From assembly GCA_035235625.1 (NCBI GenBank), contig CP141142.1:18114995-18178994 (forward strand): a DNA stretch of 64,000 nt, given 5' to 3'. This DNA comes from Saururus chinensis (lineage: Eukaryota > Streptophyta > Magnoliopsida > Piperales > Saururaceae). Shown one piece after another: positions 41,830 to 63,569 of the stretch (within the stretch, counting starts at the first letter, position 1; each line of letters opens with the position of its first letter). The notes below the pieces were generated by a model that saw nothing but the letters and a program-made list of their open reading frames with translations, did not search any database and had not been told where the DNA came from. The position numbers were made by a program, and so were the translations under genes.

Positions 41830-43860
41830 TTTCTTCTCGTCCTTCCTCCTCTTCTCCCCTTACTGAGCTTCTTCCCCACCCAGAAGACGATCCGCTACTT
41901 CTTCTAAAAGGTTTCTACACGCCTTTCTTAATCCTGTTTCTTTAAGGGAAAGGCAAAGAGCAGCAAAAACGAGACGGGGGAAATAGCAAACAAACAAACA
42001 AAGATGGGGTCTCTTCATTGGAAATGAGAAAGAAATGACCCAGAAAATGCACTAGGAGTTAAGAAAGTATGGGGGAGGAGGAAGATTCAGTTATTAAGGT
42101 GGCAGCGTACATCGAAGTGTGGGACAAGGCTGTCTACGGCATGGGGGAGTACTTTCACCTAGAGATCCACGAACTTGCGGCATCACATCAGCCTGCTATT
42201 TTGCAATGCAGAAAGGGTGACTTTTAGACGTTCCAATATAACTCATCTCGTTTACGTGGATAATTACGACGCTACCACCACTCGTTCATTTGTTTTTTCC
42301 AATGCAAAGTACGAAGTTTTTTCTTTTGGACGAGCTGAATTAGGTAGAATACAACCCAAATTAGTAAGTTTCGTTTGGTTATTCAGTTCTAATTCATTTC
42401 CAAGAGTTAAACAACCAACTCAAACTTGGTTCCGATCCAGTTTCTTCGATGAAAGACCAAAAATCGAACCGGAATAGGATATTTTACTTTTTTAATTAAA
42501 AAATATGTTATTGGCCGTTCATTTAAATGAACAGCCAAGATTAACCATATCCTACCCCTTGACCAAATTAGCTAGACTTCTAATTTGGCTATATATCTAA
42601 ATTATTAGTAACTTTTTACTATTTATCTAACTAGATTTAAAAACATGTGAAGTAAGAAACATGCGACTAGAAATGGCATGAGTACCCTCTCTGCTTAGTT
42701 TATCATTGATTAAGAGGGAAATGCATGCGAGAAGAGTAAAAGCTCTTGTGTCTCCCCTACATCCCAGTAACATCATCCCCGACTTCGTCTTCCTTGGTGG
42801 TTTTCTTTTCCTGTGTGGCTTCCTCTTCTTGTGTGGCTTCCTCTTCCCCGGCAGTTTCCTCTTCCTGAGTAGTTTCTTCTCCCCAACGGCTTGTGCTACC
42901 TATTTAGATTTTTTGGGTAAATAGAAAACTAAAAAACCTAGATAACTAGAAAACTAAAATGTTAGAAAGCTAAAAAATTAATAAACTAGATAACTGGAAA
43001 GTTGTATTATTAGATGTCAGAAGAGCATGGAAAGGAACAAAAGTTTTGTTATGTATTTGGACATTTATTGGGATACAAATGGTACAAAATATAATTACGA
43101 AATTGCAATAACAAAAGTCACTGAAGTTTCATGCAAAGTCACCTATGATGCCCGCTCCCATGAAGTTTACATGGTTAAAGAAAAAATACTCATTAAAGTT
43201 AAGTTTAACATATCATATAGCAGTTTCAATTGACCTTCTACCTTCTAAAAATCATGATATTGAAACTCTCCAGTGTTTCCTTCAAGAGAATAAGCTTAGG
43301 TCAAATGGAATACCACTGATGATAACTAAAGCAATAAAAGAAGATATCACCAATGGGAATATCAATGTCAATGTACTGAAGTGGGACGAGGAGATGGGAA
43401 GAAAATGAGCAAAGTGGGAGGAGAAAATAGGAAGAAAGAGAGCAAAGTGGGAGGAGAAGAGTACTTGTTATATTGTTCTATAAAACATAACTATAAATCT
43501 CAGTTGTGGCAAGGATAAACTCCAATTAGATGAGTTATTTCATTTAGAAGAGAAGAGTAGGATAAAGAAAACAGATATATCTTGTAAGAACATAAGTGTC
43601 ATTATGTCATGATTGGCTTATTTATGTGATCAAAATAATGTCATGAATTTGTATAATTTTGAGTCAGTTTATGTGTAAAGATTGAAATTTGAAGATGGAG
43701 TATAAGGAAGGATTAAATCCATATTTCATTAGGGTAAAACAAGCACACACATCACATTAACATACTTTAGGGTACAAGAAACCTTAGGTGAAAGAAAGGT
43801 GAGAGTTAGAGTTTATTTTGAATAAAAATAAAAAATTTGTTTATAGTGACAATCATTAAA
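41830..43860. other. Upstream region of NAT and unassigned DNA
   Basis: The first few hundred bases presumably hold the NAT promoter and 5' UTR; I could not fix a TATA box with confidence. A near-perfect 28 bp palindrome lies at 42511-42538 (core GTTCATTTAAATGAAC). An 18 bp tandem repeat (GTGTGGCTTCCTCTTC-like, about four units) lies at 42795-42885. Open frames at 42175-42477 and 43027-43408 match nothing I recognise. Confidence 0.35.
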
Positions 43861-45340
43861 CAATATCGATCGATCGATTTTGAACTGCAGCAAAGCTCTC
43901 CCGAATATTGTTGATAGATTGATTTCTTCATTAAAATGATCGATCAACACTTGAAACAACCTTTGTTAAATTAAGCCAAGATTTTGTAGATCTATTGCTT
44001 TGTCAATCGATTAATTGATATGAGGAGTCATTAGAAGGAATCAACTAACCGTTCGATCGCCCTGTGGAATGATTGATTGGTGGAACTAAGAGTTGCCTGA
44101 ATTAACTTTTCTGGTTTGTTTCTTAATTAATTGTATATTCCTTTTGAGACTTAGGGAGTATAAAAGGCTTGGAATGTGAAGATAAAGGGAGATGAGGCAT
44201 AGAGAACTTGTGTAGAGTTGCTCTAATAGTTTCTAAAGAAAATTAGTCTTCTAGGTTCTGATTTTGTCTACCTTAATGAAAAAAGTGATTAGAGATGAGA
44301 TGACCTCACAAAAATACATGTGAAGCATGGTGTTTGATGGAGATTATTATTGAGAAGATCAAGGAGAAAGAATATTGTTGCGGAATTGCCTAAATTAGAC
44401 TTTTTGGGTTTAATTTATCTTCCTAGTTGAATACATATTCCTTTTGAGACTTGGGGAATCTATAAAAAGGGTTGGGAATGTGAGGAGAAAGGGAGAGAAG
44501 GCTTTGAAAACTTAGAGAGCTTGTATGAGGTTGCTCTAATGAATTTAACTTTTAAGAGAGAACTAGTCTTCTATGTTGTGATTTTGTCTACCTTAATAAA
44601 AAAAGTGATTAGTGGTGAGATGTGTGCACAAAAATACATGTGAAACATGGTGTTCGGTGAAGATTTTTGCTAAGAAGATCAAGGAGAAAGAAAATTCGTT
44701 CCAAATGAGGAGATAAAAGCTCTACATTGATCAAAAGCACAAAGAGAAGAAGATGATCAAACTAATACCGGTAAACAATCAAGGAGTAGTTGATTCAGAT
44801 CAAAGTGGTGTGAAGAACCAACCAATAAAAAAAAGAGTATTTGTTCTTTATAATCGGTAATTTTATAATCTAAAATTTACATAGTGCATAATTGATTTGG
44901 ATAGTGTGCCCCGTGATTTTTTCCTAGTTAGGTTTCCACAAAAAAATTCTTCTGTATTTTGCTTAGTAATTTGATTGCAATTTTTTGTTAAAACATATAG
45001 GGATTAGGCACATTGAATTAGATAAAGTCTGTGTTTATTTTATTTAAAAAGGGAAGATAAATCTTGTAAATAGATTACAAGTTAGTGACACTTTATTTTT
45101 CTTGGTTTGTGTATATTACACATTGATCACAAACCAACACATCTCGCATTAACATTGATTAAGAATTATCAGATGATGAACTAGCAAGTGTAAAACAAGA
45201 GTGTGAGATTTATATAAACATAAATAATTGTCACTAGCACACTTATAAATGACTTTGGATTAGACGTGAGATGAGTAGAAGAAGATTGGAAAATTAATTA
45301 TGTGCAAGATATTCAATATGCCTTACCATCAACACATGGA
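43860..45340. other. Unassigned DNA with GATC-rich words, possible LTR
   Basis: It carries repeated ATCGATCGAT-type words (43866-44090) like those in the LTRs of this window, then a promoter-like tandem duplication at 44090-44700. It could be part of a retroelement LTR, but no TG...CA ends with target duplication were found. Confidence 0.35.
44090..44700 (+). repeat. Tandem duplication (~300 bp x 2) of a promoter-like segment
   Basis: Each unit has ATATTCCTTTTGAGACTT, a TATA-like word (GTATAAAAGG near 44159; CTATAAAAAGG near 44460), TTGCTCTAAT, GATTTTGTCTACCTTAAT and AAAATACATGTGAA in the same order. Divergence between the units is moderate, so the duplication is not recent. Confidence 0.75.
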
Positions 45341-45352
45341 GATTAGGATTTT

Positions 45353-45480
45353 GAGTTTTTTCCATATTGCCTGGCCAAAGAATGAAATATTCCATATTCC
45401 CTAGATTTTAAACAGAAATGCCTTATGCCCTATTTGTGGACCAAAATGCCCTTAGATTTCCACTATATCAGGTTTTTATG
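45353..45480 (+). repeat. MULE left terminal inverted repeat
   Basis: It starts GAGTTTTTTCCATATT and includes CATATTCCCTAGATTTTAAA and AAAATGCCCTTAG. It matches the reverse complement of 60095-60210 with several indels. Confidence 0.8.
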
Positions 45481-45641
45481 TAGAGAGTAATATATGAACA
45501 CCGGAGCAATGCCACGCCGTTCTGGTGTGTTGGTAGTCATCAGCAGTGAATGGAACTCGCCGGTGGGAGCTAACCAATGGTGACTCACCAGCAAGAGTCG
45601 ATGATCAAGAAAAAAATATTTTTTGATACTGCACACACTGT

Positions 45642-48480
45642 GTGAGTACTCCAAAGGCTTCATTTTGTAGAAACGATCCTTCTTTCATACCGATCATGGA
45701 TAGGATTTGTATTTGCATCCATTATAATGGAGAGGTAGGCAATGATAGCATGTATATTGGTGGAATGGCACGGTTGATGAACATTTATCTGTCAGTGAAC
45801 TTTGACGAGCTGCTGGGACAAGTCAAAGCATGACTTTCTGTCAATGGTAATGTCAGTTTAAAGTATTTAATTTCATCCTCCCAATCATTCATGATATATG
45901 AATTACAAGACGATTAGGACCTCCAATCAGTGTTCTCTATTCATAAGAAGGCAAAGAAGGAGGTGTTATCATTGTATGCCAAGATGAAACAGCCTGATAA
46001 TAGTGATAAATCAATATCACCCTCCGTAGAAAGGAACCAGACAATCAATAGTGCTAAATCACCCATCATAATGCTCATCCTAGCTCTAAAGTCGGATTTC
46101 ATTTTGGATTCAATGAAACTTGGTTCACCTTTGAAACTGTCAGGTAACAATGAATCTTTAGATTATACGCAATTGGAATATTTCGTGTACTCGAGACCAT
46201 GATATTTAACATATTGTGTTAAGGGTAAATCATATCGTGTGAAGTAATAAACATGACGCGTAATATATCGCATTAGTAATTACACGATATACACATGCTA
46301 TATAGCAATTATGAGTTGTAATGTAGATATAATAACACAACATGCATTCATGTCGTAGTTTCGATAACAAGTTTTGAAATGTAAGCATGTTAACAGAATA
46401 CATGATGTTGACTAACTTCACATTTTTTAAACACAATAATGTGCAATGCAGATTGGGAGAAGCGGGAAACTTGCCCGTAACAAATCCATGTCAATCATTT
46501 TTCACCAATCCAACAAGTACAGAACCTGAAATAGAAGTAAATCAGAATAGATCAGAGGAATGGCCGCCAATGATGGGTGGGACAAGGACTTCATTTGATA
46601 ACTATGAACCTCCATACAACCATTGTAATTACGACAGTGGACAAGGCAAAGAAGTTGAAAATATGTGTGGTGAGGATATGTGGTGCGATAATGATATAGA
46701 TGACATGGAAAGTATGTCCGACCATGAAGAATTTGGAAGTAGCGAGGTTCCCAATAACGTCGACGTTGAGGCAGAGGCGAATTGGGATACAGTCGATGAT
46801 TTAAATATGTTGGAACCGAATATTGGTGAAGGCCAGCTAATGACGAGCAGTTTGCAAGCTAAGGATTACTAGAAGCTCCTCGAATTGGGTGCACATTTTC
46901 TAAACCTATTTCGTTTCAAGAGGGTCCTGATTGACTTAGCAATAAAGGAAATTTTCAGATATCATGTTGTGGATGAAAGCCAGAATACGTACACCGCAAA
47001 GTGCTCCAATGATTCTTGTAACTGGTACATAAGGGCTTCAAATATAGGAGATCATGTGACTGTCACGAGGTTAGTGCCAACTCATTCATGTGGAATCCAA
47101 AGGGAAGTCAACTAACCATCCCCTAGCATCGCACTTATGGATAGTGAGAAAATCTTATGACCTCTTTAAAGACTCAATGGACATTACACCTAAGAGCATA
47201 GCAAGTTATATATCGAAGCACTGAGGCATAATATGTTGTGAGTTGCATTTGCAGTGGTTGAGAGCAAGTGCGAGAAAACTTGGTGCTGGTTTCTTGAGTT
47301 GTTTAGAAATCATCTAAGTCTCTGATCCTCCAGCCGAGTTGGATACAATCGTTTCTGATAGACAGAAGGGATTAGCAAATGCTGTGAAGAAGTTTTTCCC
47401 ATCTACACACTATAGATATTGCATCCATCACATGGCAGCAAATATGCTGGACATATTCAAGGCCAACTACCTAAAGAATCAGCTCCATGTTGTAGCCAAA
47501 ACAGTCAGACAGAATGTGTATGATGAAACAATGAACAAGAAAAGATATTGGACCCTCAACTCAAATAGGTCTGAAAGTACAAATGCAATGTTCAAAAAAG
47601 CCAGATTGATGCCTATAACTCGTTTAATTGAGCACACAAGGGAGCACACAATAGCATTATTTGAAATACGTCGGATGGATGGTCAGGATATGATGGAAGA
47701 GTTAACTCTATTTGCCCGAAAACACATTCAAAACAGGGGAGAAGAAGCCAGGAATGTGATTGTATTGCATGTGTCAATGTATGAAGTTTAGGTTAACTTG
47801 CTATATCACCAGGTACATTGCATTCATACGGCGATGTACAAAGGGTGTGTTCGTTTATGCATGAGGGCTTCATATCATGTTAGTTTAAACATGTTAGTTT
47901 CATTCATCATGTAAGTAGATACAATTTTACTTAACGATTGTATGACACGTCGTGTAATCAAGAACACAAGAAATTCATTTATCATGCGCTCATACACAAT
48001 ATTTTCTTCATAGGTTGTGGTTAACCTGAATGATTGTACATGCACATGTGGAAGGTTTCAACATCTGGGTCTACCATGTAAGCATGCAATCACAACAATC
48101 GATAATAGACACTTCTATGTGTCTGAGTACTACAAAAGATGGTACTCTATTAAAATGCATAAACTAACCTATCGAGAGCCCTTACACCCAACGAAGGATC
48201 AGCACCAGTGGGCACCGACTGGAGTTATGCCTACATTCAGTCCACTATCCCTCAAAAGCAGCAGGGGCGTCCACGGAAAAATCATATAGAGTCACAACCG
48301 CCTCTCAAAGCCCCACGAAAATGTGGAACATGCGGTTAATTGGGTCACAACTACAAATGATGTACCAGCGCACAAGGGCACCCCCCAATGTGGCGGATGT
48401 CCCATCGACAAGCCGAAGGAGGTCAAATAATAGCGTATGCAAATGGCGTAAGGAAGGGGAGCATCGATCAGGCTTACCTT
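45642..48480 (+). pseudogene. mudrA-like MULE transposase, degenerate
   Basis: Pieces in order: an acidic N-terminal region (46450-46870, rich in D/E); a MuDR DNA-binding domain (46895-47115: KRVLIDLAIKEIFRYHVV and CSNDSCNWYIRASN, ending in a THSC zinc-binding tail); the transposase core (47250-47560: FAVVE-like ESKCEKTWCWFLELF, then TIVSDRQKGLANAVKKFFP and YCIHHMAANM); and a SWIM zinc finger (48040-48090: CTCTCGRFQHLGLPCKHA). A CCHC-like knuckle follows at 48318-48350 (KCGTCG, LGHNY). The usual region between the MuDR domain and ESKC, which carries the first catalytic Asp, is missing. Stops and an intron-like gap (47792-48016) separate pieces. In an intact copy it would bind the terminal repeats and cut DNA with a DDE active site; this copy cannot. 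Confidence 0.85.
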
Positions 48481-48836
48481 TTCCACCCCCATTCTTTAGC
48501 TAAATTTTTTTGTATATGCATCATGTTATGAACAACACGAAATATGTAATTAACATGTTCCTAAAAACACGAAATGTTGTACATAAGGTATACTCTTTAG
48601 TTGTATCGTGTAATCACCAACACAACCAAAAGGGGATTACGTGTTACTAATGACATGATAATATCAATCGATTATTAATTATTTTGTCAAGGGTGTCCAT
48701 GTCTTACACGAGATTGGTCATATTGTATGTTCTAACCCACAATAATTCCATTATTGTAATGACCCAATTCCTGAGGCATTATTCCAGAAGCATCAATACC
48801 TTCAATAACTTGGCAGTCCGTAACTATCTCACCCTA

Positions 48837-48838
<2 letters not shown>

Positions 48839-48903
<65 letters not shown>
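48839..48903. repeat. (TA)n microsatellite
   Basis: About 32 TA dinucleotides. The other copy of the duplicated unit has much shorter TA runs at the matching place (about 50031-50043) and at 49866-49882. Confidence 0.95.
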
Positions 48904-48906
<3 letters not shown>

Positions 48907-50520
48907 GGTTAGGGTTTGCATATCGCTAACTTACTAGTTGTTCGCGGAGACAGGTCATTCAGGAGATCGCTTAAGTGGCGGCTGGTGAATCGGCCCCCCA
49001 TTGGATATGGTCATCACCTCTATCCGATTGTGGGCATGATTCACTAGATGGAGATATATCGAGGTCTTCAATGATCCATCGCTTTTGCGCCCTATTTGAT
49101 AGATGGTGATTTAGCAATGACTTTTTCACGATTCCGATAATGAATATTTTTGAAGTATATCTGAGAAGGTTGTTGGGAGATCGCTCGCACAAAGATGTTC
49201 TTTGTGGAGACGTATCATTTGGGAGATTGTTGTAGTGGCGGCTAGTGAATTGGCCTTCCTTTGGATACAGTCCTCACCTAAATTCGATGGCGGGCATGGT
49301 TCGCTAGACGGTGATATATCAATGTCTCTAATGATCCGAAACATTCACGCCCTATTCGCTAAACGACACCCTATTCTTGAAATGATGGGTTTGAGAATTT
49401 GCAAGAAGATCGCACTCCAACTTATGGCTAGCGACGAGACAAATTGTTATTTTCTTTGTATTTTTAAAGTTCTGTAAAGATTAGTTTTTTGGATGTAATA
49501 AATTAATAATAGTTATATCTTTCTTCCCATTGAAAGTTTTCTTTCCCATATATTGAGAGTAATAATGTGACGATTTTTTGCTTACTAACACGCTCTCAAA
49601 ATTGGTCCCAAAGACAAGCTGACGGAGGTCGAATAATCGCGTACGCAAACGGTGTAAGGAAGGGGGGCATCAATCAGGCTTACCTTTTCAACCACCGTTC
49701 TTCAGCTAATTTTTTTTATATGCATCATATTATCAATAACACAAAATATGTAATTAACGTGTTCCTAAAAAACATGACATGTTGTACATAGGGTATATTG
49801 TATATGTGTCTTGTGTAAGCGACAACATGACCAAAAGGGTTTACGTGTTACTAATTACATGATAATATATATATATATATATTGATTATTAATTCTTATG
49901 TCAAAGTGTCCTTTGCTTACACTATATTGGTCATATCGTGTGTTCGAACCCACGACAATTCCATGTTTGTAATTTTCCAATTCCCGAGGGGTTATTCCCG
50001 AGGCATCAATACCTTCAATAACCTTGCGGCCTATATATATATATAGGGTTAGGGTTTGCATATTGCTAACTTACTGGTTCTTTGCGCAGACAGGTCATTC
50101 GGGAGATTACTTAAGCAGTGGCTGGTGAATCGGCCCACCATCGGATATGGTGATCACCCATATCCGATCGTGGGCATGATTCACTAGACGGCGATATATC
50201 AATGTCTCTAATGATCCATCGCATTCGTGCCTTATTTGATAGACTCTGATAATGAATATTTTTGCAGTATATCCAAGAAGATTGCAGGGAGATCGCTCAC
50301 ACAATGATGTTCTTCACGGAGACGTATCATTCGGGAGATTGCTGTAGCGGTGGCTGCTGAATCGGCCCTCCTACAAATACGGTCGTCACTTATATCTAAT
50401 GGTGGGCACATTTCACTAGAAGGCGATATATCAATGTCTCTAATGATCCGTCGCATTCACACCCTATTCGCTAGACGCCCTATTCTTCAATTGATAGGTC
50501 TGTGATTCTGGAAGGAGATC

Positions 50521-53500
50521 TGTAAGGACCCTCACTTTTAAACCGGGTTTTGGTTTTCTTTAATTATGGGTTATCGTGAGATTAACGTGTTTTCTGATCT
50601 TATTCGGTGATTTTGTAAATAAATAGAGTTTGTGATGGTTTTAACCAAAATCAACTTCAACATTAGTGGTTTTAAGTGATTTTAGACCAAATGTGAATTT
50701 TTAGAATTTTTCAAAATTTTTACTATTTTCCCAAAAATTAGGGTTTTGGCAGGACCCCTGTGGGCCCCACCATCAAAAATTTTATTTTTGGGTCAAATGA
50801 ACCTAGAAATATACTTAAGGTCACACAAAAATTTTCAGAATTTTATTAGGCTTAATTTGTGCTTAAATTTGTAAAATAACCACTTTTAGCCTACTTTTCA
50901 TATTTACACCCCAAAACTTACCTATGCATACCCCAACCCTTACTATAAAAGGGCAAACCTAAGCCATTTCCATTTTTAGGAATAGGCTAAGGAAGGAGGG
51001 CTTGCCTAATCCCCACTTAGGCCCGAATTAGAAGCCGATTAAGGTAAGCTTACTCTAATTAAGCACTAATCCATGACTTTCTTCTAAATTTCTTCCAAAT
51101 CTACTATTTTCCCCTTGATTCAATTCGTTTTTGACCATCAAAAGCTCCTGATTTGTGTTTTACTACAAACCCTAACATTCAAAATTCAATTTTTACTACC
51201 AACAAGCATTTCTTGAGTAAATCGATTTCTATTAGGGTTTAATTCAAACTCATTGTGTTTTCAAGGAATTCAAGAAAGGTGACTCTTCAATCCGAGCTTA
51301 ATCAAGTGCTGAGGTAATGGGTCTTCGAAATCTCTGTTTATCCATGGTAAAACTTTCTATTTTTGGCTTATTTCAAAATAGTTTGCTTGATTTAGTGTGT
51401 TAATGGTAAGATTAGAAAATGAAATTATTTAATCTTGATTTCTTAGGGTTTTGCATTATTATGGTTTGGTTTGATATTTTGGAAGTCAAGGAGGACTTTT
51501 GATGATGATTAAGGTGTTAGATGTGAATTTGAAGTGTTATCTATGGTGTTTCGGTTTGGATTTGCGAAAGGAAGAAGATGACTGTTCTGCCGTGTTGGCG
51601 ATCGATCGGCCCTATAGAGCGATCGATCGGCAACGGCCTGAAGGGCGATCGATCAGCTACACAAGAAATTGTATGTTGTGCATATGATGTCTATTTTGAT
51701 GATTCCACTTTAGCTTGCCAATTTTATATAAATGTGGAGTATTTTAAGCTATGTTAGGCTACTGGAAATACATGCTATTGAGTTTATGGAGTTGAGATAT
51801 ATGCTTAGAGATGGTGGAATGACTTATGTTTTGTGGCATGATGTTGGAATCGTTATCTTGAAATTATGAATAGTTGTTTCCCTTTGGTTAAGCATATTCT
51901 CAGTAGGACTACAATCATTGTTGAACTGATTTGTCATGATGGATTGTGGTTAATGGTGTGTGAATGTTGGTGAATGCCATGACTCAATGATGAAATGAGT
52001 GATGTTATATGTGTTTAGCCTTTGTGGTTGAGTTTTGAATCTAGCTATGATTTCAACGATTCTTCTCCTATGATTTCCGCTGGAATTCATGTTTAGATGG
52101 AAATTCACATGTGTAGTGTGGTAGTGAGTTTAATTTCAAGCATGATGGCATGTATTATGTGAAATGCTTCTACTAGATACACACACATGTGGGGTTAAAT
52201 GATGATGTTGAAGCTTAATATTGTGATTATGAATGATGCATTAGGGGCTGGTGAGAGCACTTATCATGGATTAGGATTCATGTATGCTTTGCCCACGCAT
52301 GTACCATGCTGCACGCATCATGAAAATGGATTTCCAATTGAGGCTTCATCGTGATTAATCGAATTTGACTGATTGGATGCAATGTGATGGAATTGTGTGC
52401 CGGGTTTATTGATCATAGATTAATCTCAAGTTGATTGGTCTGAAAGGACATATTTTGATTTGAAGTTCCTGTGTGGAACGATTTGAAGTTCTTGTATGGA
52501 ACGATTTGAAGTTCTTGTGTGGAACGAGTGCACTCCCCGGGTTGAGTCTTGTTAAATGGAATGAAGTGGGGACGAGTTGTGTACTTGTCTTGCGGATTGT
52601 GAGAATGTTATTATGTGTGTCATCTGGACCCTGAGAATCCAATGTGGTATGCCATGTGCACCCCGCTACCATGTGTTCTAGGGTTCTCTGTGTGAGAACT
52701 CGGGCTCTTCCCTCCGCAGAAGATGTCCCTGGGTGAACACCCCTGGTCTAGATTCTCTGTGTGAGAATGGGACATCCTTGGCTAGGATTGTCCAGGGCGA
52801 GCAGTATTAGGGATTGACAACCCCGATCTTTCTTTAATTCTTGTGTAGAATTTTGGACCATGACACGCCTTCGTGGCCTTGTCTATGCTCCCGTCTATGT
52901 GACGTTAATGTGTGATTACTCCTTGATGGAGGTTGATTTTGATGTTATGCATGTGGAATATGTATGTTAGAGATACATCCATGCAGGTTGATGTTGATAT
53001 AATGCATGTGGAATATGTATGTTAGAGATACATCCATGCATGTTGATTTTGATGTTATGCATGTGGAATATGTATGTTAGAGATACATCCATGCATGTTG
53101 ATTTTGATGTTATGCACGTGGAATATGTATGTTAGAGATACATCCATGTAGGTTGTTGTTGATGTTATGCATGTGGAATATGTATGTTAGAGATACATCC
53201 ATGCAGGTTGATGTTGATGTTATGCATGTGGGAATATGTATGTTAGAGATACATCCATGCAGGTTGATGTTAATATAATGCATGTGGAATATGTATGTTA
53301 GAGATACATCCATGCATGTTGATTTTGATGTTATGCATGTGGAATATGTATGTTAGAGATACATCCATGCAGGTTGTTGTTGATGTTATGCATGTGGAAT
53401 ATGTATGTTAGAGATACATCCATGCATGTTGAATTGTGAAATAATGCATGTGGGAATATGTATGTTTGAGATACATCTATGCAGTTTGATTTAATACTAT

Positions 53501-54176
53501 GCATGTGGGAATATGTATGTTACAGATACATCCATGCAGGCTGAATTATGCATTATGATGCAGTTTTTAAGTGATGTGAATATGTGATCAGAAAATGATA
53601 CACCTTGTACATCGTTGATTTGAAAGATTATATCGCCATGTTATCGTATTTTCAATGTTGTTAGTGATATTAAAACCATTGCTGAGTTTGTTAAACTCAC
53701 CCCTCTTTTTGTGTTTTGATTTGGGGCTGCGTGGTACGACACACAGACGGACAGGATTGCCTCTTTGAGGAAAGGTCAGAGATAGCTTGGGTGTGATGAT
53801 GGAGATCGTTGTGTGACTTACTTTCGTTTGTTTCATGCTTTATGTTAGAACCTTTGTGTAGGGTTCTTGTTTTGGATTTATGTCATATTTTACAGTTGTG
53901 ATGCTTATGACTTATTTTGAGCCAGTGTGGGCTTTACTTAGCTAAGCTTGTGGGTTTGAGATTGTTGTTTACTTTGTGATAAACAACACTTTTTCCTTCC
54001 CTTTTATTTACTCTTGCTCAAAGGATTGTGCGCACTCCGTGTTGTTGTTAATCGCCCGTGGTTAGGGTTAAGTCTTCCGCTAGAATTGTTTCTCAATTTT
54101 CACTTCGTTGCCCCCGTGCGCTTGACCGGCCCCTGGACCGGGTTCGGCTCGGGTCGGGCATCGCCAGGGTGTGACA
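50521..54176 (+). mobile_element. Solo LTR, large Ty3-type (3.66 kb), inserted in the MULE
   Basis: It runs TGTAAGGACCCTCAC...CCAGGGTGTGACA and is flanked by a perfect 5 bp duplication AGATC (50516-50520 and 54177-54181). The other tandem unit (about 49411-49421, GCAAGAAGATCGCA) shows the same site without the insertion, which proves it. A promoter-like CTATAAAAGG lies at about 50943. There is no coding sequence. It is the same broad type as 17915-21061. Confidence 0.95.
52930..53560. repeat. Tandem array of ~60 bp units in the solo LTR
   Basis: About ten units read GTTATGCATGTGGAATATG, then TATGTTAGAGATACATCCAT, then GCAGGTTGATGTTGAT. The central units are nearly identical, and the last ones carry a GGGAATATG variant and drift. 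Confidence 0.9.
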
Positions 54177-54319
54177 AGATCGCATGCCAACTGATTGCTG
54201 GTGTCGAGATGGATTGTTATTTTCTTTGTATTTTTTAAAGTTCTGTAAAGATTAGTTTTTTGGATGTAATGAATTAATAATAGTTATATCTTTCTTCCCA
54301 TTGAAAGTTGTCTTTCCTA

Positions 54320-55416
54320 TATAGTGGATGTAATGATACTTGTTGAAGCGTGTATTCCTTAACACGATATGTTCGTATATCGTGTTACTTACCACATGAC
54401 AATAATACACTCACACTTTGTTCTCACACGACTTTCGTAAATATCGTGTTCACATGAACACGATGAGTTATCAGTCCGTTTTACTAGCTCAGGACTACAA
54501 TGATGAATATTTATGCTAGATGTGTAATCAATTACACAATATTGGTCATGTCGAGCACACAACAACTGCATTAATTTAAACACCCAATTCCCGAAGCGTC
54601 ACCACAATTTTTAGGATTTCAATTAAATTAGAATCACCAATTCACGTGTAGTCATTTCCAATTTCCAATTACACTATATATGGAATAATTTCCATATATA
54701 TATTTAACTGTTTGTATCCCTCGCATCCTGCCTATATATATCAAAGAGACCTATGGGCTCAATTCGCGAAGAGCACAAGACAGAGCCTTTGGGACAGTGA
54801 TATAGTGCCAGATGGTAATTTGTCCCCTTCAGTGGCGCGGTCCTAACCAGCCTCTGAAGGGGGGCGATTTACTACCCAGCGTTATTTCAATGTCGCGAAT
54901 GTTCCTTCACAAATGAACTTTATATGTAGATCAATCATATAACACGACCTACACTATTATGATATGTCGCTTTCGCGACAACATCCTCTAAAGTGGTCAT
55001 CCATAAACATATTTGATTTCAGTTAACGTTTGAAACTTTCCTATGATCATCCTCGTTTGAGAACGTTTGGTCGTCGGTTATGATCAACGACATGCGTCTT
55101 TTTCGTTTGTTTGATTACACGACATCAAAAAGTCCTAATACGAGATGTCTTTTCCACGATAACACAACCTAATATGATGTGGCATGTATGTGATAGCACG
55201 ACCTAATAAGTGATTGTGAGAACTATAATACGATTGGATATATGTGTACTTCCGTTTCACGCTATCTAATACACGATATTGGTGCAAATCGTTTGATCGA
55301 TTATACACCATTTGACATTGGTACATGTATTTCTATTCCATTAGTTAATTACAAAATAATTAGTCAAACATTGAATTAGTTAGTTAATCGAAGCGTGAAA
55401 GAAGTCTATTTTCTTT
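54320..55416. other. MULE non-coding DNA between the two genes, with a hairpin
   Basis: An imperfect inverted repeat has arms 54814-54832 (GGTAATTTGTCCCCTTCAG) and 54854-54876 (CTGAAGGGG...TTTACTACC) around a 21 bp loop. The rest holds many ACACGA/TCGTGT words. It is the space between two converging genes, so it may carry their 3' ends. No gene is seen. Confidence 0.5.
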
Positions 55417-58400
55417 TTACAATTCACCTATTTCCGGATCATATTCCTCTTCGATTCGGGCCCAAAGTATAGCAGCATAGATTATCGGCCTGACCAAGCT
55501 TGTTATCTCTAGTTGTCTAAAATCTGGCTAAATGACGCCTCTTGCTAGTTTCACTACGTAGTACATGACGAACAAACCACAATCTTCGTTTGTTTCTTGG
55601 TACGGGCATTTGTTGATCTTAGTCATTGGCCACAGTCAAGCACCTTTTATCTTCAGTGCCTTCTCCATTCCATTAGAAACATGTTTCCTTACACTGCCAC
55701 CTTGGCGAAGTGGTGAATGTGTTCACCCTTTAGAGAATTGTACCAACTAAATCACTTCTCCCTGCAGCGGACAAAAAGCAAGAGAAAGTGGCCCTTGACG
55801 TAGATAGGAATGAAACTGCTCTTCGTGTTTTCATTCATGCCTCTCAACAATATGCCAGAGAGTTTGCCCTCCTTCTCCACCAGCCCTTCTGCTGTGCCAA
55901 CATTAAAGTAGTGGTGAATAGCGAACTTGCAAAAAAAATAGTTGGGGTACCTGCTTGGATTTCTCAAATTTTGTTCATCAAGAAGTTGGAAGAAGACGTC
56001 GATGACCTACACAAAACCATACGTGTAAGTAATGACACAATAGTCGACCGATCGTGATTTCATTTACACGATAAGTGATTATAACGAATTAACGATAACA
56101 TAACGCATTTGCAAGTCATGTATGAATTAACATGCTAGTTTTACTTTAGCAATTACAGTCAAAACTCAGCGTATAAGGAAAACAATGATATGATCCTAGG
56201 TTGTGTAATCGATAAAATGATAATTAATTGTAATATGCTTCAGTTATTCAATTGTTCGATTGATAGCATGATAGATGTTCAAACGTATGAGAAATGAAAT
56301 GATATTACCTCATTCGTTATGCACTTTTGCTTTAACAGAGATAGGTAGTCAGTGTAGAGGAGTGTCTCTATAGGCCACGACTTGTATGGGTTCGATAGAA
56401 ATTTGGAGATAATTTCCTTATCTGCCTCCATCTAAACCTCTATGTGGAACACCAACTCTGTGTCAAGATAGTCATTTGGCCGCAGACTACGTTCCTCCTT
56501 ATTCGTCTTAGTCGCAATATCATCTTCGACATCTACAACATTGTGAATACTCTCCATTACTTTCGCATCTACTGGAAGAGTATCCAATAAAGTGCCTTCA
56601 CTAGAAACTGTGATTAAGGTTGCTGGTTCCGGGGTGGGAGACTTTGGATGTGTTGGACAGATAATGCTTGGGCCAAGGACCGATGCCAAAGGTACTTCAT
56701 CACCAGGCTTTCCAGGCTGGGCAATATGTCCACATTTTGCTAACTTCTCATCAATGTAGCTGTTGAAATGCTTCGACTTCTTCGAGCCCTGAATTGAGAC
56801 TTTCTTCAGAGGCTCCTCACCTTTAGCAGGTTGTTCAACTACAGTGTACCTCAAATTCTGTAGCACAAGAGGTAAGAAGGAAGCGTGAGGATTAGCTTTC
56901 CGCTTCAATCTGATTTTTATTGCTTGTTTCGAGACAACTCTTTTATTTGCTTCCTGGGGTGCTTCCGGTCCCTCCATGGGTTATTTTGAAATCTCTAGTT
57001 GTTATGCCAGTCCCTCACGGGATTGTTCTAGTCTATCATGGACTTGAGCCACAAGCTCCTAGGGAAGGTCCAGTTCCTCTACATACTGGGGTTGTTCTTT
57101 GACATCCCGGGGGTTGTTCTTCTACCTCCTAGGTGGTTCCATGACCTCCTATGGTTGTTCCATGAATCCTGCATTTATTTTCGTCAAAAATCTAGTTATT
57201 ACGATCCTTTGCAACTTTGGACCAATCTTCTTCTTCAGTTTAGTGGCAGCTTGCAGTTTCTATTTCTTTGTATATAAGAAGTAAGTCATCATGTTAGTAA
57301 ACACATGATATGCACGCTAGTCATCTTTTACCAAACACGATGAAACTACATATCGTATTGTTGGAAAAATGAAAAGTGGACTAATTGTGCTCACGATCAC
57401 ACGACCACGCAAAGATTGTTTTCAGAAGTAACTACTGCTTCAATGATCGTGTGATCGATTATATGACAATACCAAAATCGTCTTTCTTAATAAACAACAT
57501 GATCCCCTATTGTGTACTCGACTACATGAAGATCCCCTAATGAAACACAAAACATTAAAATGTCGTACTTACTCAAAATGAATCCCTCTTCCATCAGCTG
57601 AGGGACATGTACTGGTTGATCTTCAGGAGCAGATGGTTGGCGATCTTCTTTGGATTTTAAATCTCTTATCTTTAAGCAAACCGACATCGATCCTTTGTTT
57701 CATGACAGAGGGGTTGATGCTTGGGCGACCTCTGGCTGAGTGGGTTCAAACGGTTGTTCTGTCTCTGGTTCCTCAGGGGTTTGCATCTGTTCTATGAGGC
57801 TAGTTGCTACCTCGAGATCATTCTTAACACGCTAGAGTGCAGCTTCAACTCACTCCATGTTCCATCCCCGCTCACCGTAGAGCACAACCTTCTCCAAAAC
57901 AACTTCACATATTCCTTCCATGACATCAATTGGCATGATGAATGATTCAATGACGTCATGGCCAAAATGTACATGCCCCGACGTCTCGCCGTGGAGGGCG
58001 TGGCCGAGTCTCATTGGCCAAAAAGTTTGTGTACCCGCCTTCTTAGCTTTCGGGGTCGACCTTTCAACATCCATCAAGTGCGCCTCTTTGGGAATTGGTG
58101 TGATGCACATACCAATTTGGGAGTCTGGATTCAGCCTCATGAAGGCAACCTCGTACCACTTCCTCACCCAGTGATGAGCTAGAATCTTCTTCCTCCCATT
58201 TTCGTCGGCCAAGTCAAGTTTATCGGCCTTCTTCATGTTGCTCAAAAGTTGCATAAATCTAGGCCACCTCTTGCACCTCGGGCTGCATGGAGGACCATTG
58301 GGAGCCCATATGGACGTATGCTCATAAAACCATACCTGGTGAACAATACATAAGAATATAGTCATTAGTGCAAATGGTTAACAAATTAGTCGTGTTACGG

Positions 58401-59369
58401 ATAACACGCTTTCTGGCCCATCGTGTTTTCTGTAACACGATATGTTCTGATTGTCTAATGTCATATCCATGATATTATACTTAGTCGTGTTACCAAGAAC
58501 ATGATATGTCTACATGCAAGTTATATGTCATATGTCTGATAACACGATTTAGTTCATTTTGTGTGACCGATACGGCGATATTCAAATGTCTGTAAGCATA
58601 TTATGTCATTAGGCGATAGGATATTAGAATTCGTGTGGTCCTTACCTGGAGCACTAATGAAGCCCCAATGAGAATTTCGGCAGTGGCGGAATGCTCATCC
58701 TGTTTGCTTATGACGTTCCGGTGGGCTGCCGATATGCCTCTCATTAGCATATCATGTACAACGCCTACCCAATTGTAGCTCCCCACGACGGACATGTCAT
58801 CTAAGTAATCACACAAAGCTGGGGATACAGGTCTGTTGCTCTGTGTGAACAACACAAGGACACCCATGTGCACGATCACCAATCGTGCTAAGTCCTTGTT
58901 TGAAATAGTCCTTGTTTTGTCAGCCACTTCTTTCAACATTTCTTCAAGTCCTACGGTCTCCGGCCGCTTCCCTTGGAAGAATTCTTGTAGAATTGCCCCT
59001 TGCCTTGGGCAGCCTTCCCCTCGCTACTTTCCAATTTACACAGGTTCCCTTTTCCACTCAAACCCGTGATCATAGCCACTTCAGCCATAGTAAGGGGTAG
59101 TCTTTTGCCCCTTATGTTGAAGACCTCTAGTGAGTCATCCCAATAATTACCAATGAGTACATCCAACAATGGCCGAGAGATGATGATGGGCTCGCAATAA
59201 TATATTGGGTAGAACCTAGTCTCCACTAATATGACCTTGCATCCTAGATGTGATCTACAAGGTCTTTTGATAGACGCAGTCCAGTAGGGAAACTATTCGT
59301 TCCCATACCCGGTCTTCTCCCGTAGATTCTCTTCTTCTTCTCTTCTGCAACCTTCACTGACTCCGCCAT
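55417..59369 (-). pseudogene. DUF1985-Ulp1-type cysteine protease gene of the MULE, degenerate
   Basis: It opens with MAESVKVAEEKKKRIYGRR at 59369. A DUF1985-like region follows (59230-58600: FNIRGKRLPLTMAEVAMITG, then DYLDDMSVVGSYNWVGVVHD), then 58350-57850 (QVWFYEHTSIWAP), a linker rich in charged residues (57690-56430), and a C48/Ulp1 peptidase domain at the C-terminus. In that domain, IPIYVKGHFLLLF (about 55765-55810) is the His block, with GHF where GHW is usual, and CPYQETNEDCGLFVMYYV (about 55555-55610) carries the catalytic Cys (codon 55579-55581) and the oxyanion Gln. It ends with TAA at 55417-55419. Ulp1 proteases remove SUMO from proteins; what the MULE-borne forms cleave is not established. 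Several stops and unresolved introns make this copy a relic. Confidence 0.8.
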
Positions 59370-59399
59370 TTGATGTAATACTCTAACTTTACATCAGCA

Positions 59400-60100
59400 A
59401 AATTGGATAAATATATGTCAATCAACAATAAGTCGTGACCATAATCAATAGCCATGTCGATTCACATTATATAGCTAACTTGTATTTATACGATAAGTAT
59501 ATTTATCGTGTGCTCAAATATACGCTACGAGAAAGTCGCATGCACGATATCAAAATGGTTGAACATCGTGTTTCCAACGTCTTATTGAACACATGATATA
59601 TGCCTTATCGTCTGACCCAACGATAGTCTGCTTTGACTACCTTTGTCGTGTGCTCTAATACATGCTAAATAAAAATTTGTGCATACAAAGATATGAAATG
59701 CCTTACCATGAAACCACTGCTGCTATTCCCCAAGCCGGATTAACCACTCGTTCGGCTGCTGCTTTTCTACAAAGTTTACTCCTTTACCCAAATCGTTGCA
59801 AACCCGAACCGCTCCTACAAAGAAGAACCACCTTTGGGGCATACAGTTTCAAAACTCAACTTCGCAAACTCGTTCCAAAACTTGTTCTTCGCAAACTCAT
59901 TCCAGAACAAAAAAACCCTAGTCTTCCATGTTTGGTCAGATAGGTCTCAAAATCTTCTCCCACATCGCATGAACGGTGCTAAACCAGAGCACTTTGCAAT
60001 CGGAATGGAGTTTTGAATCGGAACGGGTCAATCAGAGGAATCACCGGCATCTGAAGTTGTATGCCAATGAATGCGACTTCGTGAGGGTTTTACACGATAT
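59400..60100. other. MULE right-hand non-coding region
   Basis: This is sequence upstream of the Ulp1-type gene and inside the right terminal repeat. It probably holds that gene's promoter. ACACGAT/ATCGTGT words occur at about 59503, 59542, 59564, 59644 and 60092. The open frame at 59662-59943 on the plus strand has no recognisable motif. Confidence 0.4.
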
Positions 60101-60210
60101 AAAACCCTACCTCCGGTCAAGGGTATTTTAGTCCCAAATTTACCTTATATCGTATTATTCCAAGTTTTTTGGCATTTCCATTTAAAATCTAGGGAATATA
60201 GAAAAAACTC
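60095..60210 (-). repeat. MULE right terminal inverted repeat
   Basis: Read on the minus strand from 60210 it gives GAGTTTTTTCTATATTCCCT, then AGATTTTAAATGGAAATGCC, matching the left end at 45353. The flanking TAAGATTTT is the target duplication. Confidence 0.8.
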
Positions 60211-61140
60211 TAAGATTTTTATGGCAATCTCATTTTAAATCTTATATGAGGGGTGAATCATGGTGCAAAAAAATTGTGGCTAATTCTTCAAATCTTCAAG
60301 ATCAACTTCAGCCGAATGATAAAGGGTATGAAAAAAAGAATATTAAAATTCACACACCGAATCTACCTAACAAAAACTCACTTGGGTTTTAATGGGACAA
60401 AACATTACTACAACAAAATGGAGTATTAGCGACCCATATATTTGCGACGCTTAGCTAAGCATCGCTAATAATAACTATTTGCGACATATAAAAAAGCATC
60501 GCAAAAAATTAAACTATTAGCATTTTCAAATGCGACCCTAATAGTTATATATTAGTGACACTTAGCTTAAAGCATCGCTAATACTAATCATATTAGCGAC
60601 GCTTTATTATACGCGTCGTTAATAGTTCCTCTATTTGAGATGCTTTATATAACCATTGCTAAAGGTACATATTTTAAATAACAAAAGAAAAAAATACAAC
60701 TATTAGTGACGCTTTTCATAAGCATTGCTAATAGCTTTCTCAATAGCGACGCATATACACAAGCGTCGCTAATAGTGCTACTATTAGCGCCGCTTACAAA
60801 AGTGTCACTAATAGTATTGAATTAAAAATAAAAAAATACAAATTTTAAATTAGTAGTGACGCTTGTAAATAAGCATTACAAATACTATTTCTAATAGCGA
60901 CATTTGTTAACAAGCGTCGCTAATTGCTTTATTAATTGATTTTTTTTAAAAAAATAAATATTAAAAAAATTATAATAAACTTTTTAAATATAATATATTT
61001 TATTTAATATTTACTATTTGTATATTCTATAAATAAATATTAAATTTTTAATAAAAACTAGTGTTAATAATTCACTATTTATATGTAATATATTTTATTT
61101 GTTAAATTTTATTATTAATTTTAAAATATAATTTGTTATA

Positions 61141-61350
61141 AAAGAGAGAGTGAAGAGAGTGCATTGATAGAGAGAGTGAGAGTGAGGAGAGAGAGACAAA
61201 GAGGGAGGAGAGTGAGAAGGAGGAGAGAGGAGAGAGATAGGGAGAGGGAGAGAGGGTAGAGAGAGAGGTGAGAGAGAGAAGAAGGTGGAGAGAGGGAGGA
61301 GAGATATGGAGTGGGAGAGAGGGTACAGAGATAGAGTGGGAGGGAGAAAA
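61141..61350 (+). repeat. GA-rich tract in the CACTA element
   Basis: Purine-rich sequence of GAGAGAGGGAG type on the plus strand. It gives no believable protein. Confidence 0.9.
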
Positions 61351-61582
61351 AAAATTTAATTAAAAATTATTTTTTAAAAAATAAAATTTTTTTAAAAATA
61401 GGTAATAGCGACACATAGCTTTATGCGTCTCTACTACTTAATAGTAGTAGTGACGCATAGAACTATGCGTCGTTACTACCTAATAGTTGTTGTGACGCAT
61501 GATAATATGCGTCGCTACTACCCTTAATAGTAGCGACACATATGGCTATGCATCTCTACTATCTATTTTTTAAATAAAAAAT

Positions 61583-62062
61583 TGAATGAAAGAGAGAGGG
61601 GAAGGGGAGAGAGAGAGAGGAGAGAGAGGAGAAAGAGAGAGGGGAAGAGGAGAGAGAGGAGAAAGAGAGAGGGGAAGGGGAGAGAGAGAGAGGAGAAAGA
61701 GAGAGGGGAAGGGAAGAGAGAGAGGAGAGAGGGAGAGAGAGAGGAGAGAGGGAGAGAGAGAGAGAGAGGAGAAAGAGAGAGGGAAAGGGAAAGGGGAGAG
61801 AGAGAGGGAGGGAGGGAGGAGAGAGAGAAAGGAGATAGAGGGGAAGGGGAGAGAGAGGGAAGGGAGGGGAGAGAGAAAGAGAGAGGGAAGGGAGGAGAGA
61901 GGGAGGGAGGGTGGATAGAGAGTTAGAGAGAGAGGAGGGTGGAGAGAGAGGGAAGGAGGAGAGAGAGCCAAGAGGGAGGAGAGAAAGGGGAGAGAGAGAT
62001 ATAGGGTGAGAGGGTACATAGAGAGAGAGAAGAGGGTGGAGAGAGGAAGGAGAGAGAGGCAA
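61583..62062 (+). repeat. Long GA-rich tract in the CACTA element
   Basis: Almost 480 bp of G and A only, with loose units such as GAGAGAGAGGAGAAAGAGAG. Long open frames on both strands (Glu/Arg-rich or Ser/Leu/Pro-rich) are a by-product of the composition. Confidence 0.95.
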
Positions 62063-62289
62063 TTTTTTTATTTCGTTTATTTTATATTTTTTACTTAAAA
62101 ATTAATTAAAAATAGAAAAAGAATCATGTATTAGCGATGTATAGGAATATACGTCGCTAATACTAGGTATTATCGACTAGCGACATATAGGCCTATACGT
62201 TGCTAATACTCAAAGGTAGTAGCAATGTATATGCCTATACATCGCTAATATATGTTTATTTTTTATTAATTTTTTTAAAAAATATATAA

Positions 62290-62620
62290 AATAGAGAGAG
62301 GGAGAGAGAGAGAAAGAGGGAGGAAAGAGAGAGGGAGGAGAGAGAGGGAGAGCGAAGAGGGAGGAGAGAGAGGGAGAGCGCTAGAAGAGGGAGAGAGAGA
62401 TAAGGAGGAGAGAGAGAGGAGAGGGTGAAGAGAGAGGGAGGTGAGAGGGAGGAGAGAGAGGGAGAGAGGGAGGGTGGAGAGAGAGAAGAGGGAGAGAGGG
62501 AGGGTGGAGAGAGAGAAGAGGGAGGAGAGAGAGAGGAGAGAGGGAGGAGAGAGAGAGGAGAGAGGGAGGAGAGAGAGAGGACAGAGAAAGGAGAGAGGGA
62601 GGAGAGAGAAGGGGTAATAC
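62290..62620 (+). repeat. Third GA-rich tract in the CACTA element
   Basis: Same character as the two tracts before it, with a clearer period (GAGAGAGAGGAGAGAGGGAG) near 62520-62580. Confidence 0.9.
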
Positions 62621-63569
62621 GGTGTTTACGATGCTTATTTATAAGTGTTGCCAATGAAAACTTATTATGACATATTGTAAAAGTCACTAAAATTTAATGT
62701 TTGAGACGCTTAGAGGAACGTTGCAAATGACTTTCATTTGTGAGGCTCTCTAAGCGTCGATAGAAAACATTGTCTGTGTACAAAAAATTTGCGTGCGCAC
62801 AATTCAAAAATATTACGCCGGGGCAAAGCTTTTGCCCCGCCGGGCGAATTTATATCACTCGCATGGGCGATTTATATCACCCCACCTCCTCCCTCTCCCT
62901 TTCTCGCAGTCACTACACCCCCCCCTCTGTGCACCAACCTCCCACCGGCGTTGGATCCGGCACTTCCGCCGGATTCTGATGCCATTTTTTTAATTTTTTC
63001 TAAAGTTTATAGCAATGCTTATAAAAGTGTCACTAACGGTTTTTTAAATGTTTTTAAAATTTTACTAAGTATTAGCGACGCTTTCATAAGCATCGCTAAT
63101 ACACAATTTTTTTAAAAAATATGATTTTAATTAACCACGCTTTAAAAAAAATTTATTATTTTCTAAATTAATTTTTATTAGTGACACATAAACAAGTGTC
63201 GTTGAAAATCAATTATTAGCGACACTTAAGTATTATGCATCGTTAATAATTTAATATCAGCGACGCTTTACTGTACATCGCTAATACTAAAATTATTAGT
63301 GACGTAAGAATAAACGTCGCTAATGTGCACTATTAGCAACGCTTTTTGTAAGCGTCGCTAATGAGCAAATGCGACTCATGTTTTAGCGACGTAAGTAGCG
63401 ATGCTCTAGTCATTAGCGATGCTTTTACTATTATTAGCGACGCTTATAAGTGTCGCTAATTGTCTTCTTTGTTGTAGTGTGTAGGCCTCACACAAAGTTT
63501 ACTTGGGCTCACTTGTTTTATCAAAATAAAAACCCAAGTGTGAGTTTTTGTTGGGTAGATTTTGTGTGT

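What the first reader, a model, noticed from the sequence alone, without database searches (positions are those of the whole stretch)
45353..60210. Full-length MULE pairing a mudrA-like transposase with a converging Ulp1-type protease gene
Seen: inverted ends GAGTTTTTTCCATATT / GAGTTTTTTCTATATT, 9 bp flanks TAGGATTTT / TAAGATTTT, MuDR and SWIM domains on the plus strand, and the CPYQETNEDCGLFVMYYV peptidase block on the minus strand. Known: some plant MULEs (Kaonashi type) carry Ulp1-like genes, usually described as lacking long terminal repeats. Inference: this family kept recognisable ends and a stable two-gene convergent plan, with the protease perhaps counteracting SUMO-dependent silencing or acting on the transposase.
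Basis: partly seen in the sequence, partly recalled or inferred. Interest (0 to 1): 0.75.

Follow-up and report, generated by a model that had tools for sequence, protein, structure and literature searches.

The report
Jumping gene with self-protecting binding sites
A plant jumping gene carries, next to its own transposase gene, a second gene of the kind that undoes DNA silencing in thale cress, and its non-coding DNA is studded with one short word set out in step with the turns of the helix, which makes a testable prediction of how it may escape being silenced.

Summary
The element is real, but the window copy is an old wreck. It belongs to a large MULE family: 699 TIR-core matches, 0 for the reversed pattern. 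Better copies have ~75-bp TIRs, perfect 9-bp TSDs and a convergent plan (Ulp1 opposite and downstream in 55 of 55 mudrA loci with a listed Ulp1 neighbour). The window's right TIR has an internal gap and its mudrA lacks 575 bp. The second gene is DUF1985 plus Ulp1, the domain pair of VANC/KIU anti-silencing proteins. New: TATCGTGT occurs 12-20 times per copy (0.3-0.5 expected), 2 of 53 sites in coding DNA, 0 in 60 kb of other MULE/DUF1985 loci; sites share one helical face (10.5-bp phase) although their flanks are unrelated. Another DUF1985 family in the genome has a different array, GAAAACTATAAAACTG. Best reading: a VANC-type, sequence-specific anti-silencing system. Binding and demethylation are inferred. 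The Ulp1 site has Asn for Asp in 12 of 12 copies. The mechanism class is known, and TIR-bearing VANDAL-group elements too; the motif, its phased layout and the altered protease site are the variant.

The parts
45353..60210 (+). whole MULE copy, TIR to TIR
   Evidence: ends unique in window; main colinear blocks 82-91% identical to copies A, C and X
45353..45427 (+). left TIR, ~75 bp
   Evidence: 96% identity to the family TIR probe, positions 1-75; alignment of 30 5'-end loci
60170..60210 (-). right TIR, shortened: outer ~11 bp plus positions 42-71 of the family TIR; ~37 bp missing inside
45344..45352 (.). left target-site duplication TAGGATTTT
   Evidence: 8 of 9 with 60211-60219
60211..60219 (.). 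right target-site duplication TAAGATTTT
45696..46199 (+). mudrA N-terminal PB1-like exon, decayed
   Evidence: homologous exon of copy A hits Pfam PB1 exactly at its cut-off (23.6 bits); window pieces
46873..47115 (+). mudrA MuDR DNA-binding domain
   Evidence: PF03108, 41 bits
47228..47231 (+). junction of a 575-bp deletion (copy A 1879-2452); in copy A this DNA encodes VDSTFLKGKY
47318..47791 (+). mudrA, C-terminal part of the MULE transposase domain (82-bp deletion at 47538)
   Evidence: PF10551 positions 66-99, PF00872
48014..48289 (+). mudrA SWIM zinc finger
   Evidence: PF04434, 42.5 bits
48399..50040 (.). internal ~1.2-kb duplication of intergenic DNA
   Evidence: repeat families D6, D7, D9, D10, D12 spaced 1204-1213; both copies match copy A ~3.7-4.6 kb
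50521..54176 (.). insertion absent from copies A, C and X; holds a 55-bp x 11 tandem array at 52926-53544
58601..59292 (-). DUF1985 domain of the second gene, in two overlapping frames
   Evidence: window piece weak (14.9 bits, cut-off 35.1); copy A homologue over cut-off (35.9; 37.4)
56282..58377 (-). middle part of the DUF1985-Ulp1 gene, variable; 21-bp repeats near 57073-57170
   Evidence: open pieces; tandem repeats
55420..56006 (-). Ulp1/C48 catalytic exon, in pieces of two frames; Q and C kept
46200..60130 (.). dispersed TATCGTGT/ACACGATA sites (12 exact); putative binding sites
   Evidence: 12 inside vs 1 in the remaining 49 kb of the window; shuffle mean 0.45, max 2

Best explanation
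A TIR-bearing MULE family with a VANC-type anti-silencing system. mudrA (+) makes the transposase. The converging gene (-) makes a protein with an N-terminal DUF1985 domain, a variable middle and a C-terminal Ulp1-like domain. This protein, made by intact copies, is proposed to bind TATCGTGT sites in introns, intergenic and subterminal DNA of its own family. The sites lie on one face of the helix, so several protein molecules can line up side by side; chromatin marks and DNA methylation are then removed from the whole element and mudrA can be expressed. The Ulp1 part may trim SUMO from silencing factors or may only bind SUMO. Shown: anatomy, family structure, domains, motif enrichment, noncoding bias, helical phasing, family specificity. 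Inferred: that the DUF1985-Ulp1 protein (not the transposase or a host factor) reads the motif, and that reading it removes silencing.
For: DUF1985 over Pfam cut-off in copy A and other family members; C48 over cut-off with SENP alignment. Motif: 20, 20, 13, 12 sites in copies A, C, X, window vs shuffle means 0.3-0.5, max 3; the top 8-mer apart from TA repeats in the three fetched copies, 53 vs 1.5 expected. 2 of 53 sites in hand-set coding intervals that make 52% of those copies, p 1.7e-14. Zero in 26.3 kb (8 top-scoring MULE-domain loci) and 33.8 kb (10 top-scoring DUF1985 loci). Helical phase: adjacent-site mean cos 0.60-0.73 against jitter maxima 0.45-0.64, p 2e-4 in each of 4 copies; period scan of adjacent same-strand gaps (A and C) peaks at 10.5 (0.57; 10.0 gives -0.14, 11.0 gives 0.03); flanks of near sites are not duplicates (identity 0.34-0.37 vs 0.30-0.34 far). 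Another DUF1985 family has its own, different tandem array next to its DUF1985 gene, as VANC21 and VANC6 targets differ. In Arabidopsis VANC21 sits in introns, intergenic and terminal noncoding regions with a short family-specific motif (PMC5735166, passages); VANC genes with Ulp1 (KIU) are reported to act likewise (review passage PMC13317346).
Against: No binding, methylation or expression data. The young family F3 (L085, 7 kb) shows no enriched word. Family-2 arrays have an 8-bp, not a 10.5-bp, step. Motif CpGs decay like other CpGs (0.51 vs 0.48, p 0.46; 0.59 vs 0.54, p 0.36), so present copies show no protection. DUF1985 dN/dS 0.55 is no lower than its best frame control (0.56). The four copies are homologous, so sites are not independent; the centre offset for opposite-strand pairs was fitted to the same data (same-strand gaps need none). 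The best-repeated-8-mer score is not specific: four of 14 window tiles outside the element score 17 or more, as high as tiles of A, C and X (12-22), two of them far higher.
Confidence: 0.68

Rival explanations
1. The motif is a binding site of the MURA transposase (or a second transposition protein), used for transposition or for control of the element's own promoters.
For: Dispersed, family-specific motif; the transposase carries a MuDR DNA-binding domain; sites occur near both ends.
Against: The sites are not in the TIRs but spread through presumed introns and intergenic DNA over ~10 kb, coding DNA being avoided; transposase sites are expected in or next to the TIRs (general knowledge).
Confidence: 0.15
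2. The motif is a host transcription-factor or architectural-protein site that the family accumulated.
For: Helical phasing would also suit cooperative host factors.
Against: Absent from the other MULE and DUF1985 loci examined and nearly absent from the rest of the window; another DUF1985 family has a different array.
Confidence: 0.1
3. An ordinary Kaonashi-type MULE whose Ulp1 works as an active SUMO protease against SUMO-dependent silencing; the motif is incidental.
For: Convergent layout as described for KI-MULEs (PMC2528002); Ulp1 exon dN/dS 0.31 vs frame controls 0.80 and 0.88 in 12 sequences, ten of them chosen for open frames.
Against: Catalytic Asp is Asn in 12 of 12; long TIRs; the motif's phasing and noncoding bias are not incidental.
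Confidence: 0.05
4. The phasing and enrichment are a by-product of old tandem duplication of intron DNA.
For: Hosaka et al. describe tandem-repeat growth of VANC targets; family 2 shows it.
Against: Flanks of neighbouring sites are barely more alike than those of distant ones; opposite-strand pairs are phased too.
Confidence: 0.05

Closest known systems
VANDAL21 / VANDAL6 with VANC21 / VANC6 (Arabidopsis; PMC5735166, passages read)
   Same: MULE; DUF1985 protein; short family-specific motif accumulated in introns, intergenic and terminal noncoding DNA; related families with different motifs
   Different: motif TATCGTGT instead of YAGTATTAY or AGTTGTCC/AC; sites dispersed and phased rather than in tandem repeats; DUF1985 and Ulp1 in one gene; long TIRs, where VANDAL TIRs are called degenerate (PMC10398659 passage), although a MULE survey lists a VANDAL group with 46-174-bp TIRs and says that some members have TIRs (PMC6446971 passages)
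KIU-carrying VANDALs and anti-silencing systems of eudicots (Sasaki et al. 2022, PMC9016345, not held; known to me from recall and from a review passage in PMC13317346)
   Same: VANC protein with Ulp1; motif-specific; eudicots. I recall that its abstract names DUF1985, DUF287, Ulp1 and motif sequence, density and helical periodicity as determinants (recall, no call)
   Different: this motif and this family could not be compared with theirs
Kaonashi KI-MULEs (Hoen et al. 2006, not held; via PMC2528002 and PMC13317346 passages)
   Same: Ulp1 gene opposite to mudrA
   Different: KI-MULEs are described as non-TIR; this family has ~75-bp TIRs
ULP1-bearing MULEs of melon, rice and grapevine (van Leeuwen 2007, not looked up; Benjak 2008 passages)
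   Same: Ulp1 in MULEs, in melon also in TIR-MULEs
   Different: no DUF1985 or motif array mentioned in the passages I saw

Membership tests
Mutator-like element (MULE) | mudrA transposase with MULE/MuDR/SWIM domains | tested here: met
Mutator-like element (MULE) | 9-bp target-site duplication | tested here: met
   perfect in 3 of 3 fetched copies, 8 of 9 bases in the window
Mutator-like element (MULE) | terminal inverted repeats | tested here: met
   70-79 bp at 91-97% to the probe at both ends of A, C and X
VANC-type anti-silencing system | DUF1985 protein encoded by the element | tested here: met
   copy A over PF09331 cut-off; window piece itself below it
VANC-type anti-silencing system | family-specific short motif concentrated in noncoding DNA | tested here: met
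VANC-type anti-silencing system | protein binds the motif and removes methylation | not testable with these tools
   no binding or methylation data
VANDAL family | degenerate or absent TIRs (typical, but not general) | tested here: not met
   long conserved TIRs
VANDAL family | transposase groups with VANDAL transposases in a tree | not tested
   no VANDAL sequence at hand
VANDAL family | three genes VANA, VANB, VANC | tested here: inconclusive
   two genes seen; a third was not sought systematically
Kaonashi KI-MULE | Ulp1 gene in reverse orientation to mudrA | tested here: met
   55 of 55 loci
Kaonashi KI-MULE | non-TIR element | tested here: not met
Ulp1/SENP peptidase (C48) | His-Asp-Gln-Cys active site | tested here: not met
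   His 13 of 13, Cys 13 of 13, Gln 10 of 13, but Asn for Asp in 12 of 12 (SENP alignment); domain over Pfam cut-off

The most novel reading that the evidence does not exclude
A methylation-gated, helically indexed anti-silencing code: the element's DUF1985-Ulp1 protein reads a CpG-containing word (TATCGTGT) only as a face-aligned array in introns and intergenic DNA, so the array both marks 'self' and senses the silencing mark itself, in a MULE that keeps the long TIRs thought to feed RdDM; several such codes with different words and different steps (10.5 bp here, 8 bp in family 2) coexist in one genome.
Probability: 0.25. Interest if true: 0.85.

Novelty: new variant of a known kind. Interest (0 to 1): 0.6.

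Why it matters
Sequence-specific anti-silencing has been worked out in Arabidopsis VANDALs, where degenerate TIRs and VANC genes are said to be commonly seen together (PMC10398659 passage; but for TIR-bearing members). A high-copy MULE family with long TIRs, a DUF1985-Ulp1 gene and a helically phased motif array gives a precise word and spacing rule to test, asks whether TIR loss is needed for such a system, and offers another genome in which at least two different motif systems lie side by side.

Tried and rejected
Pattern search for a fused palindrome used 13-bp spacing by mistake (observed 14): 44/40 hits vs 14/14 control, not used. CpG-retention test of the motif: no difference. dN/dS of DUF1985 (0.55; frame controls 0.56, 0.82) and of the mudrA PB1 exon (0.42; 0.50, 1.06) are weak because frame controls are also low; part of mudrA exon 2 gave 0.50 without a frame control. 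AlphaFold of the DUF1985 exon (mean pLDDT 54) and of the Ulp1 exon (38) were too poor for a fold search; none was run. A weak Plant-mobile-domain hit of DUF1985 (18.2 bits, cut-off 34.9) was not pursued. Rfam: nothing at gathering score in 44000-61500. The best-repeated-8-mer score alone is not specific: four of 14 window tiles outside the element score 17 or more; the case rests on location, family specificity and phase. Papers sought but not held.
Full report
What is in the window. Pfam finds MuDR, MULE (part) and SWIM domains on +; the Ulp1 block lies on - within 55531-55635. DUF1985 lies upstream of it on the same strand: weak in the window piece (14.9 bits) but over the curated cut-off in copy A (35.9; 37.4). 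That DUF1985 and Ulp1 belong to one gene is inferred from strand and order; no transcript was seen.

The family. Ends and genes were searched in it. Aligning 30 loci for each end gives a ~75-bp TIR shared by both ends: the window's right end has lost ~37 bp inside it. A 26-bp TIR core with up to 3 mismatches has 699 hits, 0 for the reversed pattern. The searches list only the best rows (150 each for the proteins, 40 for each end). The 150 mudrA rows are 140 loci; 55 have a listed Ulp1 match downstream within 20 kb, all 55 on the opposite strand, none has one upstream; for DUF1985 it is 41 of 41 downstream (1 lies upstream). DUF1985 is followed by Ulp1 in 62 loci, 61 on the same strand. Fourteen of 40 5' ends have a downstream mudrA, all on the same strand; 14 of 40 3' ends have DUF1985, all as expected. 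Of 158 merged ends, 14 inward pairs lie 3-20 kb apart against 1 outward and 1 same-strand; 12 of 14 hold a listed gene. Absence from a list is not absence from the genome.

Three full copies were fetched: A 10,762, C 9,331 and X 9,504 bp, each with a perfect 9-bp duplication. Against copy A the window copy lacks 575 bp of mudrA, including the segment that in copy A encodes VDSTFLKGKY (probably around the first catalytic Asp, by recall of the family), and 82 bp more; it has a ~3.66-kb insertion and a duplication. Copy X lacks the Ulp1 exon (no match to window 55.0-56.4 kb). The fetched copies are 84-86% alike, i.e. old; in the translations I found none with both genes uninterrupted (by inspection).

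The motif. A k-mer comparison of the element with the rest of the window put TATCGTGT/ACACGATA among the top words beside simple and tandem repeats (12 inside vs 1 outside). In A, C, X and the window copy there are 20, 20, 13 and 12 sites; dinucleotide shuffles give 0.3-0.5, maximum 3. By approximate, hand-set exon intervals, 2 of 53 sites in A, C and X fall in coding DNA, which is 52% of their length (p 1.7e-14); of the shorter core TCGTGT, 13 of 125 do (same call). With a looser pattern, sites in copy A cluster in the gaps between mudrA open segments, presumed introns (860-1077, 2025-2104, 3204), in the intergenic region, between segments of the second gene and in subterminal DNA. The word is absent from 26.3 kb around the 8 best MULE-domain hits and 33.8 kb around the 10 best DUF1985 hits; the MULE loci look mostly coding (open frames) and so are a lenient control.

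Helical phase. Same-strand gaps between neighbouring sites are mostly 21, 31-32, 52-53, 63-65, 74-75, 84-85, 95-96 and 105, with exceptions (12, 25, 27, 29, 30, 37, 45, 46, 58-61, 80, 107). The mean cosine at 10.5 bp for adjacent sites of either orientation is 0.655, 0.599, 0.733 and 0.706 in A, C, X and the window; 5000 jitters of +-10 bp never reach these (p 2e-4 each). The period scan peaks at 10.5. Opposite-strand pairs prefer 14 (convergent) and 17-18 (divergent), which fits the same face (offset fitted on these data). Flanks of neighbouring sites are hardly more alike than those of distant ones (0.364 vs 0.326, 0.372 vs 0.343, 0.340 vs 0.300), so recent tandem copying does not explain it. 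The copies share ancestry, so the four tests are not independent.

Other DUF1985 families. Most of the loci L075-L084 carry a different repeated word, AAACTAT/AAACTGG in 8- and 16-bp steps (5 to 30 per 3.4-kb locus); in L082 (C11:20520434) about 30 units lie largely within ~170-200-bp tandem repeats next to the DUF1985 match. A young family (F3; e.g. C6:17363228 MULE + and C6:17378832 DUF1985 -) has the same convergent plan, but 7 kb around its DUF1985 gene show no such word.

The protease part. In 12 relatives plus the window piece His is kept in 13 of 13, Cys in 13 of 13, Gln in 10 of 13 (R in A, K in C, a stop in L095), and the position of the catalytic Asp is Asn in 12 of 12 (the window piece has no data there). 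SENP alignments put this Asn on the D of YD. The His-Asn and Gln-Cys spacings (17 and 6) equal those of SENP1 (recall). The Ulp1 exon has dN/dS 0.31 against 0.80 and 0.88 in wrong frames, but ten of its 12 sequences were picked for open frames. The exon thus seems maintained, with an altered active site.

Interpretation. In Arabidopsis, VANC21 binds YAGTATTAY in introns, intergenic and terminal noncoding regions and induces methylation loss throughout the element; VANC6 does so with another motif (PMC5735166, passages; PMC10398659, introduction read, and passages). A review states that VANC genes with Ulp1 (KIU) act likewise and that the Ulp1 domain is strongly conserved in eudicots, its function in these TEs unknown (PMC13317346 passages). 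The primary paper (PMC9016345) is not held; I recall from its abstract that motif sequence, density and helical periodicity set specificity. The family here meets the tested marks of a VANC-type system and adds its own word. Its TIRs are unlike those ascribed to VANDAL and KI elements, though a MULE survey (PMC6446971 passages) lists a VANDAL group with 46-174-bp TIRs; without a transposase tree I do not file it as VANDAL, and the non-TIR mark of KI-MULEs is not met. Binding and anti-silencing remain to be shown.

Novelty. Searches for DUF1985 (5 papers), for at least three of VANDAL, anti-silencing, MULE, Ulp1, DUF1985 (6 papers) and for at least four of VANC, VANDAL, DNA-binding, motif, helical periodicity (3 papers) showed no description of this motif or of a TIR-bearing DUF1985-Ulp1 MULE in the listings and passages I saw; many papers of subscription journals, and the 2022 paper, are not in that library.

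Noticed in passing
window 60410-63465: Next to the element: ATTAGCGA-type word ~18 times in 3 kb between inverted ACTACAACAAA-like ends, with long GA arrays inside; looks like another DNA transposon with subterminal repeats.
   Followed up: partly
window 26053-26656: 13 copies of a 46-bp tandem repeat containing TTGGCCAA.
   Followed up: no
window 14945-15302 and 18629-18922: Two 57-bp tandem arrays of 5-6 copies with different units.
   Followed up: no
window 42918-43000: Degenerate AAAACTA-type repeats (24-bp unit) resembling the family-2 motif, 2.3 kb left of the element.
   Followed up: no
L085:175-640 (-): Mitochondrial carrier-like reading frames (by eye) near the DUF1985 gene of the young family F3; possibly a captured host gene.
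   Followed up: no
C2:398799/410943, C2:48194576/48209578, C3:50979850/50964357, C6:17378832/17363228: Convergent MULE and DUF1985 matches 12-16 kb apart with long open frames and equal or nearly equal scores: a probably young family of the same plan.
   Followed up: partly
copy A 7776-7887, copy C 6180-6289, window 57073-57170: 21-bp tandem repeats between DUF1985 and Ulp1, perhaps 7-residue peptide repeats; VANC proteins are reported to have tandem peptide repeats in variable regions.
   Followed up: no
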